Shown piece by piece: positions 17,138 through 25,368 of a DNA stretch of 64,000 bases. A model generated the notes under the pieces. It saw only the letters and a list, made by a program, of their open reading frames with translations. It was not told where the DNA came from and ran no database searches. Position 1 is the first letter of the stretch. The number at the start of each line of letters is the position of its first letter. Both the position numbers and the translations under genes were made by a program. Origin of the DNA: Pelagibacterium nitratireducens (GTDB lineage: Bacteria; Pseudomonadota; Alphaproteobacteria; Rhizobiales; Devosiaceae); assembly GCF_037044555.1 (NCBI RefSeq), contig NZ_CP146275.1, forward strand, positions 3,328,501-3,392,500. The letters run 5' to 3'.

Positions 17138-18259
17138 CTATGCCCCCTTCTCTTGCGGCACGGGATCGGGATCTCGCTTTTGCCGCGTTGCCATAAAGGC
17201 AAATTCGACCGGACGGCGCAGCATGTTGCTCATGGCACCGGTAAACAGGATCACAAGGGCCTGAATGGTGACGATCATTTCGCGGGTGATAGCGGGCATG
17301 GTAAAGGCCAGCTCCTGCCCACCCTGATAGAGCACGCCGAAGAGCAGCGCTGAGAGCCCCACCCCGATCGGGTGGGCCTTGCCCATGAAGGCCACGGCGA
17401 TGCCGACAAAGCCGGTGCCGGCTACGTAACCCAAAATCAGGCGGCCATGGGCACCGGCAGTGTCGTTTACCGCGACCATACCGACAAGCGCTCCGGAAAT
17501 TGCCATGGTGGCCATGATGAGCTTGGCGTTGGACATACCCGCATATCGCGCGGCGGTGCTGTTATGTCCCATAGTGCGCAGGGCGTAGCCGAACTTGGTA
17601 TGCCAGATCAGGATATAGACGCCGATCAATGCGAGAATGGCCAGAATGAAGGAGATGTTGACCGGCGTGTTGCGAAGCAGCGGTATCCATTCAGCCAGGA
17701 ACGGCACACGGGTGACTTCAGCGATGCGGGCACTCTCGTCGGAATTGATTTCTTCCGGCTTCAGGATGCGCGAGATGATGTAGCTCATCATCGAGGTGGC
17801 GATGAAGTTCATCATGATTGTGGTGATGACGACGTGCGACCCGCGTTTGGCCTGCAGATAGCCGGGAATAAAGGCCCATGCGCCAGCGAAAAGCGCCGAG
17901 GCGATCATGATGAGCGGCAGGGCGAAGGCCCAGTGCAACCCGCCAACGGCAAGCGCCACAAGAATGGCGCCGAGCCCGCCAACATAGGCTTGCCCTTCGC
18001 CGCCGATATTGAACAGCCCGCCGTGAAAGGCGACCGCAACGGCCAGGCCCGCGAAAATGAAATTGGTGGTGTAATAGAGCGTGAACCCGAAACCGTATCC
18101 GTAGCCGAAGGCGCCGTAGATCATGATGCGGACAGCTTCGATGGGGTTTTCACCCACGATCAGGACAACGATACCACCGATGATGAAGGCCAGGGTAACG
18201 TTGAGCACCGGCAGAAGGATGATATCGACCCAGCGGGGCAAGGGCATGGACGCACTCAT
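17138..18259 (-). CDS. Nucleoside-type ABC transporter permease (first)
   Basis: The 373-residue membrane protein of the NupP/YufP type has about ten hydrophobic segments. It shows the conserved FHGGLFNIGGEGQAYVGG motif, IPGYLQAKRGSHVVITTIM, and GTGFVGIAVAFMGKAHPIGV. Its start overlaps the ATPase stop by 4 bases. The cytoplasmic C-terminal tail is charged (RQKRDPDPVPQEKGA). It acts in the inner membrane with the permease at 16172-17134. Confidence 0.9.
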   Translation of the reverse strand: MSASMPLPRWVDIILLPVLNVTLAFIIGGIVVLIVGENPIEAVRIMIYGAFGYGYGFGFTLYYTTNFIFAGLAVAVAFHGGLFNIGGEGQAYVGGLGAILVALAVGGLHWAFALPLIMIASALFAGAWAFIPGYLQAKRGSHVVITTIMMNFIATSMMSYIISRILKPEEINSDESARIAEVTRVPFLAEWIPLLRNTPVNISFILAILALIGVYILIWHTKFGYALRTMGHNSTAARYAGMSNAKLIMATMAISGALVGMVAVNDTAGAHGRLILGYVAGTGFVGIAVAFMGKAHPIGVGLSALLFGVLYQGGQELAFTMPAITREMIVTIQALVILFTGAMSNMLRRPVEFAFMATRQKRDPDPVPQEKGA

Positions 18260-19848
18260 TGGCTCGACTCGGTGGATCTGGTTTTTTCGCCGGCCCCGAC
18301 ACCGGCCATAAGCAGGCCCAACTCGCCTTCATCGGCGGTGGCCGGATCGGCCTCGCCAACGATCTGGCCGTCGAACAGGACGACAATGCGGTCTGACAGC
18401 GAGCGGATTTCATCGAGCTCGACGGAAACCAGCAGAATGGCTTTGCCTGCGTCACGCATCTTGATGATCTGGTTGTGGATGAACTCGATGGCGCCAATAT
18501 CCACCCCGCGCGTGGGCTGGCCCACGATCAGGACGTCGGGATCGCGCTCCATTTCGCGGGCCAGAACGATCTTTTGCTGATTGCCACCGGAAAAATTGGC
18601 GGTCTTGAGGTCGGTATTGGCCGGACGGATGTCGAATTTTTCGATATGGCGCTCGGCCTCGGCCCTTGCGGCCCTGACATCGAGTATCAGTCCTTTGCCA
18701 TAGTTTTCATGGTAGCCGAGAATGGCGTTTTCCCACTCGAAGAAATTGGTGACAAGGCCCATGCGGATGCGGTCCTCGGGCACATGGGCCAGACCGTTTC
18801 GCCGCAGCATGGCGGCGCTGTCCTCGTTGACGGCGGTCACATCATGGCCGTTCAGGGAAATGCTGCCCGATTTTGCGGCGCGCATGCCGGCTATACATTC
18901 AAGCAGTTCGGACTGCCCATTGCCAGCAACGCCGGCCACGCCAAGAATTTCTCCAGCCCGCACCTTGAGTGATATGCCCTTGAGGCGTTCGACCCCTGCG
19001 TCGTCGGTGACGACGAGATCGTCGACATCGAGGAGCACATCGCCGGGGCGGGCCTCTTCCTTGTGGACGCGCAGCAGAACGCGGCGCCCCACCATCAACT
19101 CGGCGAGTTCTTCGGGACTGGTCTCCGAGGTCACCAGCGATTCCACCATCTGGCCCTGACGCATGACCGAAACAGTATCGGTGATGGCCATGATCTCGCG
19201 CAGCTTGTGGGTGATGAGGAGTATGGTCTTGCCCTCGTCGCGCAGCGTCTTGAGCACCTTGAACAGGTGATCGGCTTCGGCCGGGGTCAGCACGCCGGTC
19301 GGCTCGTCGAGGATCAGGATATCGGCGCCGCGATAGAGCGCCTTGAGAATTTCCACCCGCTGCTGCTGGCCGACCGAAAGGTCCTGGACCAGCGCATCGA
19401 CGGGAACATTGAGCCCATAGTCGTCAGCAAGGCGCTGCAATTCGCGGCGTGCCTTTTCGACGCTGGGGCCCAAAAGCGCCGAATCCTCGGCGCCCAGAAT
19501 GACGTTCTCGATGACCGAAAAATTGTCGACCAGCATGAAGTGCTGATGAACCATGCCAATGCCGAGCGCCAGCGCATCGGAGGAATTGTGGATGGTTACT
19601 GGCGTTCCGTTGACCACGATCTCGCCGCTGTCGGCGTGATAAAAGCCGTACAGAATCGACATCAGGGTCGATTTTCCGGCTCCGTTCTCGCCCACGATGC
19701 CATGAACCGTGCCTCGCGTAACAGCGAGGTCGATATCCTTATTCGCGTGAACCGGCCCGAAGCTCTTGTTGATCTTTTTCAGTTCGATCGCCAGAGAGGT
19801 TTCAGCGGCCGGAGCCGGCCGCTGAACGTTTTCGGTTTGCGTGTCCAT
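18256..19848 (-). CDS. Nucleoside-type ABC transporter ATPase (duplicated domains)
   Basis: The 530-residue protein holds two ABC domains. The first has a classic Walker A (GENGAGKSTL, about residue 54), LSVGQQQRVEIL and LILDEPTGVLT. The second has the degenerate Walker A GVAGNGQSELLE and the signature FSGGNQQKIVLARE, as in RbsA/NupO-type ATPases. It powers uptake by the two permeases encoded downstream and lies 31 bases after the binding-protein gene. Confidence 0.93.
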   Translation of the reverse strand: MDTQTENVQRPAPAAETSLAIELKKINKSFGPVHANKDIDLAVTRGTVHGIVGENGAGKSTLMSILYGFYHADSGEIVVNGTPVTIHNSSDALALGIGMVHQHFMLVDNFSVIENVILGAEDSALLGPSVEKARRELQRLADDYGLNVPVDALVQDLSVGQQQRVEILKALYRGADILILDEPTGVLTPAEADHLFKVLKTLRDEGKTILLITHKLREIMAITDTVSVMRQGQMVESLVTSETSPEELAELMVGRRVLLRVHKEEARPGDVLLDVDDLVVTDDAGVERLKGISLKVRAGEILGVAGVAGNGQSELLECIAGMRAAKSGSISLNGHDVTAVNEDSAAMLRRNGLAHVPEDRIRMGLVTNFFEWENAILGYHENYGKGLILDVRAARAEAERHIEKFDIRPANTDLKTANFSGGNQQKIVLAREMERDPDVLIVGQPTRGVDIGAIEFIHNQIIKMRDAGKAILLVSVELDEIRSLSDRIVVLFDGQIVGEADPATADEGELGLLMAGVGAGEKTRSTESSQ

Positions 19849-19879: not shown

Positions 19880-20887
19880 TCAGACCGGGCAGGACTCGTC
19901 TTCGCGGTAGTCGTGAACGACGATTTCGCCCGATACGATCTTGGCGGTAATGTCGTCAACCATAGCGCGCATATCATCGGTGATGAGCTCGGCGTTGTTT
20001 TCGTCGAATGCTGCGCCCACACCGTCTTCGGCAAGGCCGAGGACCTCAACGTCGTTGGTCCATTCGTCATTGGCAAAGTCTTCGAAGGCGTCGTAGACGG
20101 CAACGTCGACGCGCTTGAGCATCGAGGTCAGAACCTGTCCGGGATGGAGATGGTTCTGGTTGGAGTCCACACCGATGCCGAGAACGCCGGCATCGGCGGC
20201 AGCCTGGAGAACGCCGACACCGGCACCACCTGCAGCGTGATAGATGACGTCTGCGCCGCGGTCGATCTGGCTGCGGGCAACTTCAGTGCCGCCGCCGGGA
20301 TTGTTGAAGGCGTCAAAGCCAGTGCCAATGGCCGTTTCGATCACTTCGATATCGGGGTTCACATAAGCGGCGCCCTGCTTGTAGCCGCAGCCGAAAGCCT
20401 GGAGCAGCGAGAAATCGAAGGCCGGAATAAAGCCGATGGTGCCTGTTTCGGTTGCCATGGCAGCAAGCGCGCCCACGAGATAGGAGCCTTCATGCTCCTT
20501 AAAAATCACCGAGCGCACGTTTTCGATATCGTCAACGACGGTGTCGATGATGAGGAACGAGGTGTCGGGGAAATCCGGAGCAACCGCGCGCAGCGCGGTT
20601 TCCCAGCTAAAGCCCGGCAGGACGATGGGATTGTTGCCCCGCGCCGCAAACTGGCGGATAGCCTGTTCGCGCTGGGCATCGCCCGAAATTTCGAGATCCT
20701 GGTAGTCCTGCCCCGTATCTGTCTTGAACAGTTCGGCGCCGTTATAGGCCGCTTCGTTAAACGAAGCGTCGAACTTGCCGCCGCCATCATAAACGAGCGC
20801 GGGATCGGCAAGGGCCGTGCCGGCCAGGAGAGTGGAGAGGGCTACGCCTGCCAGGGCGGCGATGCCAGTCTTTGTTGTTTTGGACAT
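19880..20887 (-). CDS. BMP-family periplasmic nucleoside-binding protein
   Basis: The 335-residue protein has a classical signal peptide (ALAGVALSTLLAGTALA, cut before DPALVYDGGG). It has the BMP/PnrA fold sequence FDASFNEAAYNG, FKEHEGSYLVGALAA and IYHAAGGAGVGVLQAA. There is no lipobox, so it is a soluble periplasmic protein. It binds the ligand for the ABC transporter encoded immediately downstream. As the first gene of the operon it sets the operon's start; a dyad operator lies 119-144 bases upstream. Confidence 0.93.
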   Translation of the reverse strand: MSKTTKTGIAALAGVALSTLLAGTALADPALVYDGGGKFDASFNEAAYNGAELFKTDTGQDYQDLEISGDAQREQAIRQFAARGNNPIVLPGFSWETALRAVAPDFPDTSFLIIDTVVDDIENVRSVIFKEHEGSYLVGALAAMATETGTIGFIPAFDFSLLQAFGCGYKQGAAYVNPDIEVIETAIGTGFDAFNNPGGGTEVARSQIDRGADVIYHAAGGAGVGVLQAAADAGVLGIGVDSNQNHLHPGQVLTSMLKRVDVAVYDAFEDFANDEWTNDVEVLGLAEDGVGAAFDENNAELITDDMRAMVDDITAKIVSGEIVVHDYREDESCPV

Positions 20888-21690: not shown

Positions 21691-22896
21691 ATGAGCACCG
21701 AGATTACCCAAACCGAAGCTCCCCAGCTTATGGACAGGCCTCTGCAATATCTGGACAAGGCCGTCGCGGCGATCAAGGATCTTGGGCTCTGGCCCGAAGG
21801 TGAACCGGGCGAGGCACCGATTGCAGGGCTTCTGGCCGAAATCACGCATCTCGACGACACCAGGGTCATCCTGATCGGGCGTGTTCTGACCCAGGCAAGT
21901 GCCTTCAACGAAGTGGTGCGCACCCAAGTTGCGGCGATGAATGTGGGCGAGCGCTACGAGGACATTACCAAATCCTTCAATTCGATCCGCGACGACGCCA
22001 AGAGCATGGTCGACCAGCTCGAGGACGGCAAGATCGATATTTTCGAGCGCGCTTCTAACGTGTGGATGAAGGTCTCGCGCGGCGATATCGCCGCACGATT
22101 CGACAAGATTCGCGACACCTATCTCGACGTCTCGAAAGACACCAAGGACCAGATCGACCGCGAACATACGATTCTCGAAGCCTATCGCGACTTTCGCGGC
22201 GCGCTCAAGCAGGCCGAAGTGATGGCGCTCGAAGTGCTGGACATCGCCAGCGCGCAGCTCGAGCAGCGCAAGATCGACCTGCAGGGGGCAACCGATGCGC
22301 TCAACGCGTTCACCGAAGGGACCCCGGCCGACCGCGCACGACTGGAAATGGCGCGGGACGAGCGGGTGCGCGATCTGCAGAACGAGGAGCGTCGCTACCA
22401 GATCGCCAAGGATCTGTCGGACAACCTGACGATTTCCTACTCGACCTCGGAAGTGATTATGGCGCGGCTCATGCAGACGACCAACGCCAAGGAACGCGTC
22501 TATCAACAGTCCATCTCGTTCTTTTCGACCAACGAAACTGTCCTCACAGCGCTTTCGGCCTCGTTTACCGGCCTGTTCGGGCTCCATGAATCGACCGAAA
22601 CCCTCAATGCAATGAAAGAGGGCATGAGCCAGAGCCTGGAGACACTTTCGGAGATCGGCGGCAAGGTTCAGGAGGAAGCGCTAAGAGCGGGGTACGGTCC
22701 GACCATCCGCGCAGATGCGGTAAAAAAGCTTGTCGATAGCGTGGTCAGCTATCAGGAAAAAAGCATCACCATCATCGCCGAAATGCGCGATCAGGCCACC
22801 AAAAATTCGGCTGAAATCCGCGACGCTGTCGAAGACGGCAAGAAGCGGCTGGCAACGCTCGCCGCTGAAGGCAACGCCCTCGTTTCGGCCCGTTAG
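21691..22896 (+). CDS. TelA-like helical protein of an uncharacterised three-gene cluster
   Basis: From ATG 21691 (MSTEITQTEAPQL) the 401-residue product is soluble and almost wholly helical, with predicted coiled coil at about 125-240. It has no signal peptide or membrane segment. The overall style (ADTPADRARLEM-type helices, then MKEGMSQSLETLSEIG and a final long helix) recalls TelA/toxic-anion-resistance proteins, but no diagnostic motif proves it. Homologues are, from memory, often labelled cell surface protein, which the sequence does not support. It is first in a cluster with spacings of 17 and 7 bases. Confidence 0.75.
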   Translation: MSTEITQTEAPQLMDRPLQYLDKAVAAIKDLGLWPEGEPGEAPIAGLLAEITHLDDTRVILIGRVLTQASAFNEVVRTQVAAMNVGERYEDITKSFNSIRDDAKSMVDQLEDGKIDIFERASNVWMKVSRGDIAARFDKIRDTYLDVSKDTKDQIDREHTILEAYRDFRGALKQAEVMALEVLDIASAQLEQRKIDLQGATDALNAFTEGTPADRARLEMARDERVRDLQNEERRYQIAKDLSDNLTISYSTSEVIMARLMQTTNAKERVYQQSISFFSTNETVLTALSASFTGLFGLHESTETLNAMKEGMSQSLETLSEIGGKVQEEALRAGYGPTIRADAVKKLVDSVVSYQEKSITIIAEMRDQATKNSAEIRDAVEDGKKRLATLAAEGNALVSAR

Positions 22897-22913
22897 GATG
22901 CGATAACCCGATT

Positions 22914-23864
22914 ATGGCAAGCGGTGGGGCAATAACGGGACAGACAGGCAAGGCGCCGCTGGACGATGTGATGCTGGCCATGGACGTGGTGGATACACTG
23001 CGCCATGAGCAAAATCTCGTGGCCCGCGAACTGGGGGCCACCGCCCGCGAAGCCGAACTGATTGAGCGCCTGCGCAAGATCTATCACGACCAGGGGATCG
23101 AGGTTCCCGACCATATCCTCAAGGAAGGCGTCAAGGCGCTGGCCGAGAGCCGGTTTACCTATACCCCGCCGCCCGATACATTCTCCACACAGCTGGCCCG
23201 GCTCTATGTGAGCCGGCAGCGCTGGGGACGTACGGTGCTCATCGGGGTTGTAGTGCTGGCGGTGGTGCTGGGCGGGTATTTCCTTGCCTACCGTCCCTAT
23301 CAGGCGGGCATGGAGGCGGCGGCGCGGATCGAGCTGGCCGAAGAACTTCCGGCGCGAATCGACGCCGCCTATCAGCAGATTTTCAACGAGACCAAGGTGC
23401 AATCGGCCCTCGAGGTGGCCGAGCCCTGGGTCGAGCGCGGCAAGGCGGCCGCCGAGCGAGGTGATCGCGAGGACGCGCTGGCGGCCATCGAGCAGCTTGA
23501 GGCCATCCATGCGACATTGCTGGCAGAATATTCTATCCGCATCGTCAACCGGCCGGGGGAATCCACGGGGATCTGGCGATTCCCCGAGAGCAACACCGAA
23601 GCGACCAATTATTACCTCGTTGTCGAGGCCGTGGGGTCCGATGACGACCTGGTGACACTGCCGATCACCAATGAGGAAACCGGGCAAACCGAAGAGGTCT
23701 CGACATGGGCCATAAGGGTGCCGGACGTGACCTATGAATCTGTCCGGGCCGACCGGCAGGATGACGGGATCATCCAGCGCAATATCTTGGGCATAAAGCA
23801 GTACGGGTTCCTCGATACCGACTACACGATGCCGGTTCTCGACGGGGCAATTACGCAATGGTGA
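22914..23864 (+). CDS. DUF6384-type single-pass membrane protein
   Basis: The 316-residue protein has a cytoplasmic helical N-terminus (1-105, with an ERLRKIYHDQGIEVPDHIL motif) and one clear membrane helix (107-126, VLIGVVVLAVVLGGYFLAY). A periplasmic helical region (about 128-215) and a beta-rich C-terminal domain from about 217 (IRIVNRPGESTGIWRFP, NYYLVVEAVG, YTMPVLDGAITQW) follow. I recognise it as DUF6384-like from memory. It lies 17 bases after the TelA-like gene and 7 before the coiled-coil gene, so all three are probably one transcript. Confidence 0.78.
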   Translation: MASGGAITGQTGKAPLDDVMLAMDVVDTLRHEQNLVARELGATAREAELIERLRKIYHDQGIEVPDHILKEGVKALAESRFTYTPPPDTFSTQLARLYVSRQRWGRTVLIGVVVLAVVLGGYFLAYRPYQAGMEAAARIELAEELPARIDAAYQQIFNETKVQSALEVAEPWVERGKAAAERGDREDALAAIEQLEAIHATLLAEYSIRIVNRPGESTGIWRFPESNTEATNYYLVVEAVGSDDDLVTLPITNEETGQTEEVSTWAIRVPDVTYESVRADRQDDGIIQRNILGIKQYGFLDTDYTMPVLDGAITQW

Positions 23865-23871
23865 GGCTGCA

Positions 23872-25368
23872 ATGAGCGTAAGCGGACCTCAGGCCATGCG
23901 GGCGCTAGACGATGCGCTACGCGACATCCGGCGCGAGGAAGATGACATAACCAAGCGCATCGCGCGGGCCAATGAACGTGTGGGTAAGCTGCGCGAGACC
24001 GAATTGGGGCAATTGCGGGCGGTGGCAAAGGTGCGGCTTTCGCCAGAGGTTCAAAAAGACCTGGCCGGCACTCTGAGCCAGGCCGAGAGCCGGGCGCGTG
24101 AGCTGCTCAAGAGCCATGCAGCCGCGATGGCCGACATGGAAAGGGCGCTGACCGGCAAAGAGGCCGATCTTGCAAAACTCAGCGCCGAGCGGCAGGAGTT
24201 GCTGGAAAATACGCAGAAATGGCAGGCCGAAATCGACGCTCTGGAGGCGCCCGTCAAGGCGGCACTGGCCGATGATGCAGCTTATGTTGCGTTGATTGCC
24301 GAGCGGGCCGAGACCGAAAAGGTGGCGACCGAGGCCGATCGCAAGGCCGATATGGCCGAGGCGGATCGTGAAGAAAAGGGCAAGCCCTATCGCGAAGATC
24401 CGCTGTTTTCCTATCTGTGGGACCGGGGATATGGAACGGGGGCTTACAAGGCCGGCACCTTAACGCGCATGCTCGACGATTGGGTGGCGCGGCTGGTGCG
24501 TTTTGCCGATGCGCGGCCCAATTATGCAATGCTGATCGCCATACCCGAGCGCCTGCGCGAGCATGCCGAGAAACTGGCCGCCGACGCCGATGTGCTCGAC
24601 GAGAATGTGCGAGCGCGCGAGAACGCTGCGCTGGACGCCGCCGGTGGTGGGAAAGCGCGTGCGGCGCTGGAAACGGCACAGGCGCGGGTTGAGGCCATTG
24701 ACGCGGAATTGCTGGCCATCGAGGACGAGCGCGAGAACCTGACCGAAAAGCAAAAACAGATTGCAGATGGCGGTGATCCGGCCTTTGCCCAGGCAGTGGA
24801 CATGCTGGCAGAGGCGATAAGCGACACCGGTATCGAAAGGCTTCTGGCCGAGGCGCGCGCGACGCGCACCGAAGAGGACGACGCGATCGTCGTGCGGCTC
24901 GAGGAAACGCGGCGGCGCATTGCCGAAGAGCAACTCGAACTCGACGATGAACGCAGCCGGCTCAAGGTGCTCGAGGCGCGCCGGCGTGAGCTCGAGGACA
25001 TCGAGTTCGAGTTCAAGAAATCGCGCTATGACGATCCGCGCTCCCGGTTCGGCAATGAAAGGCTGGTCGGCGATCTTTTGACCGAATTTCTCAAGGGCGG
25101 GATGACAGCGGCGGCCTACTGGGGGCAATGGCGTGACTCCCAGGACTGGACCGGCACCTCCGGACCGATCGTTCCGACGTCGCCGCGCCGGTCGAAAAAG
25201 TCGAAGGGCGGGTTTTCCGTGCCGCCGGGGGGCTTTTCGCCGCGACCGCCTTCGGGCGGCAATTGGGGCGGATTCTCGCGTCCTCGCAGCGGCGGCTTTG
25301 GCGGCGGCGGGTTCAAGACCGGTGGCGGATTCAAGGGCGGTGGATTCAAGACCGGCGGCGGATTCTGA
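23872..25368 (+). CDS. Coiled-coil protein with Gly-Phe-rich tail
   Basis: The 498-residue protein has long charged coiled coils (about 10-170 and 222-400). They flank a conserved-looking globular block at 171-220 (KPYREDPLFSYLWDRGYGTG, then ARPNYAML). The last 53 residues (446-498) are a low-complexity Gly/Phe/Pro/Lys tail with four GGGF units, two of them preceded by KT. There is no signal peptide or membrane segment. I do not recognise the family. The sequence suggests a cytoplasmic scaffold that could assemble through its tail. It is third in the cluster. Confidence 0.75.
   Translation: MSVSGPQAMRALDDALRDIRREEDDITKRIARANERVGKLRETELGQLRAVAKVRLSPEVQKDLAGTLSQAESRARELLKSHAAAMADMERALTGKEADLAKLSAERQELLENTQKWQAEIDALEAPVKAALADDAAYVALIAERAETEKVATEADRKADMAEADREEKGKPYREDPLFSYLWDRGYGTGAYKAGTLTRMLDDWVARLVRFADARPNYAMLIAIPERLREHAEKLAADADVLDENVRARENAALDAAGGGKARAALETAQARVEAIDAELLAIEDERENLTEKQKQIADGGDPAFAQAVDMLAEAISDTGIERLLAEARATRTEEDDAIVVRLEETRRRIAEEQLELDDERSRLKVLEARRRELEDIEFEFKKSRYDDPRSRFGNERLVGDLLTEFLKGGMTAAAYWGQWRDSQDWTGTSGPIVPTSPRRSKKSKGGFSVPPGGFSPRPPSGGNWGGFSRPRSGGFGGGGFKTGGGFKGGGFKTGGGF

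What the first reader, a model, noticed from the sequence alone, without database searches (positions are those of the whole stretch)
21691..25368. Three-gene cluster of unknown function: TelA-like helical protein, DUF6384 membrane protein, coiled-coil protein with Gly-Phe tail
Three adjacent genes (gaps of 17 and 7 bases) encode a soluble all-helical protein, a single-pass membrane protein with a periplasmic beta-rich end, and a coiled-coil scaffold with a low-complexity GGGF tail. Seen: domain order, membrane helix at 107-126 of the second protein, and four GGGF units at the end of the third. Inferred: they form one envelope-stress or membrane-scaffold complex, with the TelA-like part as the soluble effector and the DUF6384 protein as the anchor. 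The style recalls Ter/Tel stress systems, but no known core gene (terD, terC) is here.
Basis: partly seen in the sequence, partly recalled or inferred. Interest (0 to 1): 0.75.

Follow-up and report, generated by a model that had tools for sequence, protein, structure and literature searches.

The report
Three-gene TelA-like membrane complex, unstudied
Three neighbouring genes that travel together, in bacterial chromosomes, giant plasmids and one giant virus of bacteria, look like a distant cousin of a known membrane-protection protein plus a membrane anchor and a scaffold with a conserved end-tag; what they do has not been shown.

Summary
Genes A (21691-22896), B (22914-23864, DUF6384) and C (23872-25368) lie in a Pelagibacterium-like genome and form a strictly conserved operon: in 80 of 80 DUF6384 loci A precedes B and C, or its contig-cut beginning, follows (77 full-match, 3 cut). 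In 150 genomes of the order, 35 of 36 A places sit beside B and 35 of 35 above-cut-off B places beside A. The trio also occurs at 10 of 10 plasmid loci examined (of 11 with an A hit) and in jumbo phage phiR1-37. A is a probable remote homologue of TelA (profile-profile E 7.4e-5, score 42.9; 100 control comparisons at most 25.3), but Pfam's TelA model does not recognise it, and TerD is absent from the 34 A-B genomes of the order sample. C's 'low-complexity' tail is a variable linker ending in a conserved free C-terminal peptide, F-x-T-x-x-x-F (86 of 88, against 2 of 815 control ORFs); B ends in Trp in 87 of 92. Best reading: a self-contained TelA-type sub-membrane complex for envelope protection or exclusion of incoming elements. 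The function is inferred, not shown.

The parts
21691..22896 (+). Gene A: 401-aa soluble, all-helical, TelA-like protein (several NCBI records call relatives 'cell surface protein')
22537..22698 (+). A residues 283-336: conserved 'head' (mean conservation 0.82 vs 0.75 for the rest); residues 291-339 have pLDDT under 50; mostly missing in the orphan A paralogue L102, which has no B or C in 12 kb
22914..23864 (+). Gene B: 316-aa DUF6384 (PF19911) single-pass membrane protein
22914..23231 (+). B residues 1-106: helical domain on the positive (inferred cytosolic) side
23232..23288 (+). B residues 107-125: transmembrane helix (mean KD 2.53)
23289..23861 (+). B residues 126-316: helical stalk and small beta domain (inferred periplasmic), ending in Trp as in 87 of 92 B proteins
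23872..25368 (+). Gene C: 498-aa coiled-coil protein with a conserved middle block and variable tail
24352..24576 (+). C residues 161-235: most conserved inner part (GKPYREDPLFSYLWDRGYGT...IPERLREH)
25339..25365 (+). C residues 490-498: conserved free C-terminal peptide GGFKTGGGF (Thr at -5 in 77 of 77, Phe at -7 in 76, Phe at -1 in 75)

Best explanation
A, B and C are one functional unit: a TelA-type sub-membrane complex. B spans the inner membrane once; its beta domain samples the periplasm and its N-terminal helical domain faces the cytosol. C is a cytosolic coiled-coil scaffold with a variable linker that presents a free C-terminal peptide (F-x-T-G-G-G-F-COOH) as a docking tag. A, the most conserved member, is a long helical TelA-like protein whose head (residues 283-336) engages B, C or the membrane. 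When the envelope is disturbed (xenobiotic, membrane-protein overload, incoming DNA), B would let A and C assemble under the membrane and shore it up or block entry. Shown here: the strict three-gene unit, B's TM helix, remote A-TelA homology, conserved C-termini of B and C, presence on megaplasmids and in a jumbo phage. Inferred: membrane orientation, physical binding, who reads the C peptide, trigger and protective output.
For: Order and co-occurrence: A in 80 of 80 loci, C in 77 plus 3 contig-cut beginnings; 35 of 36 A places paired with B in 150 genomes, Fisher P 6e-33 on genomes; class survey: A and B in the same 2 of 240 genomes, copy numbers 1 and 2 matching. The three proteins' distance matrices correlate (Spearman 0.63-0.78, permuted maximum 0.13). 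A vs TelA profiles: score 42.9, E 7.4e-5, 310 aligned columns, colinear; reversed and B/C controls at most 24.6, 50 neighbour families at most 25.3. Orphan A without B/C lacks most of the head. C-terminal peptide 86 of 88 vs 2 of 815. TelA's known setting: telA1 and an XpaC-like gene, listed as putative CesSR-regulon genes, rise 3.4- and 10.3-fold on membrane-protein overproduction in L. lactis (PMC3139573, passages and the first part of one section read); a jumbo-phage survey lists TelA among Ter components forming sub-membrane structures that prevent entry of phage or xenobiotic (PMC7824862, one passage read). A StiP-PELOTA gene lies a few genes upstream of the trio on pMPPla107; pBASL58 has an annotated StiP gene there.
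Against: A is not recognised by the Pfam TelA model. The profile link was 1% probable with 79 close A rows and 19% with nine TelA rows, and reached 62% only with hand-picked diverse A rows and 17 TelA rows; the 50 control families are shallow (3 or more members). No interaction was modelled. No stress promoter signature upstream. Neither TerD nor TelA occurs in the 34 A-B genomes of the order sample, so the link to the Ter system is by analogy. StiP next door was seen in two of ten plasmid loci; four of the ten have no annotation and were not scanned for it.
Confidence: 0.5

Rival explanations
1. A is a ClyA-superfamily-like helical protein whose head inserts into the membrane, so the trio is a pore-forming or membrane-breaking device (for example abortive defence), with B as receptor and C as regulator.
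Confidence: 0.15
2. A housekeeping envelope or cell-shape scaffold (crescentin- or divisome-like), unrelated to stress, with C as a coiled-coil skeleton anchored by B.
For: Coiled-coil C with variable tail, membrane anchor B, high conservation of A (57-66% identity in the 57 rows from fetched loci), presence in all five genomes of the window's family sampled.
Against: Patchy: 2 of 240 genomes of the class, 35 of 150 of the order, 2 of 299 of the phylum; carried by megaplasmids and a phage, where a housekeeping skeleton is not expected.
Confidence: 0.15
3. A selfish or exclusion module: it protects the resident chromosome, plasmid or phage from competing phages or plasmids.
For: A is found on 11 plasmids, all 323 kb or larger (ten examined, all with B and C), and in one jumbo phage; TelA itself shows the same habit, with hits in 100 phage and 599 plasmid records and a proposed anti-superinfection role. 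Compatible with the best explanation as its output.
Against: No shared defence neighbourhood: in blastp clusters no neighbour family occurs in more than 12 of 80 loci, though flanks were not scanned for defence genes; no PADLOC family explains A or B. Most copies found lie on contigs not typed here as plasmid or phage.
Confidence: 0.2

Closest known systems
TelA family (PF05816, toxic anion resistance protein)
   Same: Helical protein of similar length; colinear remote profile similarity with A; occurs in jumbo phages and on plasmids
   Different: A is not hit by the Pfam model. TelA sits beside TerC, TerD and a TerF-like vWA gene in one of the five annotated phage loci read and near a yceD-type gene in another (TerD kinship of yceD is recalled), while A sits with DUF6384 and C. 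TelA and A-B were never in the same genome among 150, but 0 overlap has chance 0.16
TelA-XpaC envelope-stress pair (L. lactis telA1 / llmg_1115)
   Same: TelA gene paired with another gene, induced under membrane-protein load (PMC3139573)
   Different: B belongs to DUF6384 with a modelled beta domain and no Pfam XpaC hit; there is a third gene C
Ter system (TerB/C/D/F, StiP-PELOTA, PRTases)
   Same: TelA-like part; StiP-PELOTA neighbour on pMPPla107
   Different: TerD absent from the 34 A-B genomes of the order sample; no further gene belongs to the conserved unit
ClyA-type alpha-pore proteins
   Same: Overall helical-bundle arrangement of the A model
   Different: No such PDB chain found by sequence with A at E up to 1; fold match not above what helical bundles give

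Membership tests
DUF6384 (PF19911) for B | Pfam model above its 25-bit cut-off over the full length | tested here: met
   457.3 bits, E 3e-137, positions 3-308 of 308
TelA (PF05816) for A | Pfam model above its cut-off | tested here: not met
   No TelA hit in the window's A at E up to 10, nor among the 25 of 93 families listed for 62 A proteins
TelA (PF05816) for A | Homology by profile comparison | tested here: met
   E 7.4e-5, 62% probability, score 42.9 against a control maximum of 25.3, after two weaker tries; remote, so A is called TelA-like, not TelA
Ter system | TerD-type protein in the same genome or operon | tested here: not met
   TerD in 1 of 150 genomes of the order, G367, which has no A or B; none in the window's genome
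Ter system | TerC-type membrane protein | not tested
   TerC was not searched; B is DUF6384
ClyA-type alpha-pore superfamily | Fold with membrane-inserting head | tested here: inconclusive
Known anti-phage defence systems | PADLOC family match | tested here: not met
   A: best E 0.024; B: no hit; C: LmuB and JetC stretches, best E 8.5e-6, read as coiled coil
A-B-C operon as one unit | Same order and strand in unrelated genomes | tested here: met
   80 of 80 A-B; C full in 77 and cut by contig end in 3; 10 of 10 plasmid loci examined with A, B and C by HMM; phage with A and B by HMM and C by position and tail

The most novel reading that the evidence does not exclude
A new kind of sub-membrane assembly system, shared by chromosomes, megaplasmids and a jumbo phage, in which a TelA-like polymer is recruited by a membrane sensor and locked by a C-terminal peptide tag, serving to exclude rival phages and plasmids and to protect the envelope.
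Probability: 0.25. Interest if true: 0.75.

Novelty: new variant of a known kind. Interest (0 to 1): 0.55.

Why it matters
TelA is tied in print to tellurite, phage and envelope stress, but its mechanism is, to my knowledge, not settled. This trio would be a minimal, self-contained TelA-like unit with a visible membrane anchor and a short, testable docking peptide; one seven-residue truncation would say whether the tag matters. It also gives DUF6384 fixed partners. No paper naming DUF6384 was found in the open-licence library searched.

Tried and rejected
Pfam, NCBIfam, PADLOC, PHROGs and PDB sequence searches gave no family for A or C beyond coiled-coil or chance level. First A-TelA profile comparison with 79 near-identical A rows (Neff 1.9) failed, no better than C against TelA. 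B fold search: rows span mainly 132-205 (helical hairpins); nothing for the beta domain, which was not folded alone. Stress-sigma promoter motifs: one EcfG-like match in 84 upstream regions, as in mononucleotide shuffles. TelA and A-B exclusion: 0 of 7 overlap, not significant. Tree of A: Nitrospirota and Thermodesulfobacteriota rows lie among Pseudomonadota, but long branches and likely mislabelled bins (two Acidobacteria rows inside Hyphomonas) stop a claim of proven transfer. Viral-contig scans: the TelA query gave no relative, the A query found only phiR1-37. PMC13030884 was searched for g190-g193: no occurrence. Motif text search: 12 papers hold TGGGF-type strings; the ten listed look unrelated by title. 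Searches for phiR1-37 and for YceG/YceH gave nothing on the trio. The name 'cell surface protein' for A is not supported: no strongly hydrophobic segment.

Rows dropped or chosen: L038 (A cut by contig end) left out of the A, B and C sets; L050 (A in two ORFs) left out of the A set, pieces not joined. For the TelA set, L089 (frame with a stop), L095 and L096 (weak or partial) were left out, and upstream frame residues were trimmed by hand. For the diverse A set, 10 of 78 locus rows were picked by hand and joined with the window, 11 plasmid or phage rows and L102. In one search, L083 (C cut by contig end) was not counted. One search lists 37 A pieces; two pieces in G248 were taken as one place.
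Full report
What is there. The window is part of a 3.85-Mb genome whose closest named proteins are from Pelagibacterium. Genes A, B and C are at 21691-22896, 22914-23864 and 23872-25368, gaps 17 and 7 bases. The gene upstream on the other strand is a CoxG-like protein; downstream are an ArsR-type regulator and an AHSA1-domain protein.

A strict unit. From 526 DUF6384-encoding stretches, the 80 best were kept. A precedes B on the same strand in 80 of 80, including one locus where A is cut by the contig end and one where A lies in two ORFs; C follows in 77 of 80. In the other three the contig ends 97-393 bases after B, and the frame running off the end matches the C profile: 118.6 and 90.4 bits in L052 and L053, 26.8 bits in L011, where only 97 bases are left. 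The records are labelled Alpha- and Gammaproteobacteria, Thermodesulfobacteriota and Nitrospirota, many of them metagenome bins. Beyond the trio no neighbour cluster is found in more than 12 of 80 loci. A few loci have an extra ORF inside the unit: L078 (a surface-protein-like ORF) and L047 between A and B, L017 and L007 between B and C. Because these loci were chosen by B, the reciprocal test matters: in 150 genomes of the order, 36 A places were found, 35 with B 31-282 bases on by match ends, and all 35 above-cut-off B places have A. Three sub-cut-off B matches exist, two of them in genomes without A. The one A without B (G366) is a diverged paralogue. In the class, A and B are in the same 2 of 240 genomes; in the phylum sample A is in 2 of 299 (B was not searched there). 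C could not be surveyed genome-wide: the tool failed twice. The three distance matrices correlate over 76 operons, as expected for genes inherited together.

Mobile copies. A tblastn search found A on 11 of 72,556 plasmid records, all 323 kb or larger, and in one phage, phiR1-37 (two records of it), of 50,697 phage records. Ten of the 11 plasmid loci were fetched (H7 was not), and the phage locus. All ten plasmid loci carry A, B and C by HMM. In the phage, g190 is A (42% identity), g191 is B (E 2e-24), and g192, the next gene, has no HMM match to C at 1e-3 but ends GGFSSSDSF, the same nine residues as C of pMPPla107. On pMPPla107 the trio follows a StiP-PELOTA gene, a metallophosphoesterase and a PTH2-type gene; pBASL58 has an annotated StiP gene and peptidyl-tRNA hydrolase gene upstream. 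The other annotated plasmid loci show no StiP label in the stretch fetched.

Protein A. Most conserved member: 57-66% identity to the window in the 57 A rows from fetched loci, against 34-50% in 61 B rows and 26-38% in 58 C rows. The AlphaFold2 model is all helix with two helices of 80 or more residues; residues 291-339 have pLDDT under 50 although 283-336 is more conserved than the rest (0.82 against 0.75). The orphan paralogue L102 matches A at model positions 10-282 and 336-385 with only 14 residues between instead of 53, and has no B or C in 12 kb. One case only, but it suggests that the head serves the partners.

A and TelA. With 79 close A rows the profile comparison showed nothing. With 23 diverse A rows and nine TelA rows it gave 19%, and with 17 TelA rows 62%, E 7.4e-5, score 42.9, colinear over 310 columns. 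Reversed sequences, B and C against TelA scored at most 24.6 in that call (28.9 for C against reversed TelA); 50 neighbour families against A and against TelA (100 comparisons) at most 25.3. These controls are shallower than the test profiles. I take A as a probable remote TelA relative. Pfam does not call it, so it is not filed as TelA. In BFVD, three named tellurite or TelA phage proteins are among the first 50 rows, E 0.025-0.062, weak support at best, since tape-measure and SMC proteins rank with them.

Protein B. DUF6384 over its full length. One TM helix at 107-125; of 80 rows, 67 have a 19-mer of 1.6 or more, and K+R is higher on the N side in 55 of 80 (equal in 16, lower in 9): N-in, C-out, inferred. 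The model is good (pLDDT 87.7): helices, a stalk and a beta domain. It ends in Trp in 87 of 92 against 5 of 815 control ORFs; in the other five a few residues follow the Trp.

Protein C. Probable coiled coil with a conserved inner block at 161-235. The tail varies freely (entropy 2.8 bits at -10 to -40) but the last nine residues do not (0.55 bits): Thr at -5 in 77 of 77, Phe at -7 in 76, Phe at -1 in 75. With the plasmid and phage tails, [FWI]x[TSN]xxx[FILV]-end holds in 86 of 88 (not L109, L112), against 2 of 815 neighbouring ORFs; the pattern was written after seeing the tails. In the window's genome the DNA pattern for F-[KR]-T-G-G-G-F-stop occurs once, in C. A free conserved C-terminus normally means that something reads it (general knowledge); what reads it is unknown. 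C has no signal peptide by eye; 13 of 77 C proteins have a 19-mer of 1.6 or more, so some may touch the membrane.

Mechanism. I favour a sub-membrane complex of TelA type. Support from print: TelA is listed among Ter components forming sub-membrane structures that prevent entry of phage or xenobiotic (PMC7824862, one passage), and telA1 with an XpaC-like gene rises on membrane-protein overproduction in L. lactis, in the paper's table of putative CesSR-regulon genes (PMC3139573). Against: TerD is absent from the A-B genomes of the order sample, no stress promoter was found, and no binding was tested.

Novelty. No paper naming DUF6384 was found, and searches with TelA/Ter terms listed none whose title or abstract start describes this trio; the library lacks most subscription papers. 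I rate it a new variant of a known kind: TelA-like in one member, with its own anchor, scaffold and tag.

Noticed in passing
window:16172-20887: PnrA/Bmp-type ABC importer with its substrate-binding protein (19880-20887, Bmp E 1.7e-57) and, by its translation, an ABC ATPase (18256-19848), on the strand opposite the trio.
   Followed up: no
window:25473-26330: ArsR/SmtB-type regulator next to an AHSA1-domain protein just downstream of the trio.
   Followed up: no
window:43312-54536: Cobalamin gene region: CobN, CobW and a tetrapyrrole methylase whose ORF has a long N-terminal extension.
   Followed up: no
L102:5588-6568 (-): Orphan A paralogue of 327 aa lacking most of the head, in another genome of the order, without B or C in 12 kb.
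   Followed up: partly
L078:6176-7867: A SpaA/DUF7507-type surface-protein ORF between A and B in a Hellea genome bin.
   Followed up: no
L120:3794-8918: Brevundimonas phage Papperlapapp (357 kb) has TelA, a TerF-like vWA protein, TerC and TerD in a row, a short Ter set for comparison.
   Followed up: no
L121:3063-5014: Azospira plasmid pAZI09 has two TelA-like genes in tandem, one short (267 aa, E 5e-7 but 0.5 bits below the Pfam cut-off).
   Followed up: no
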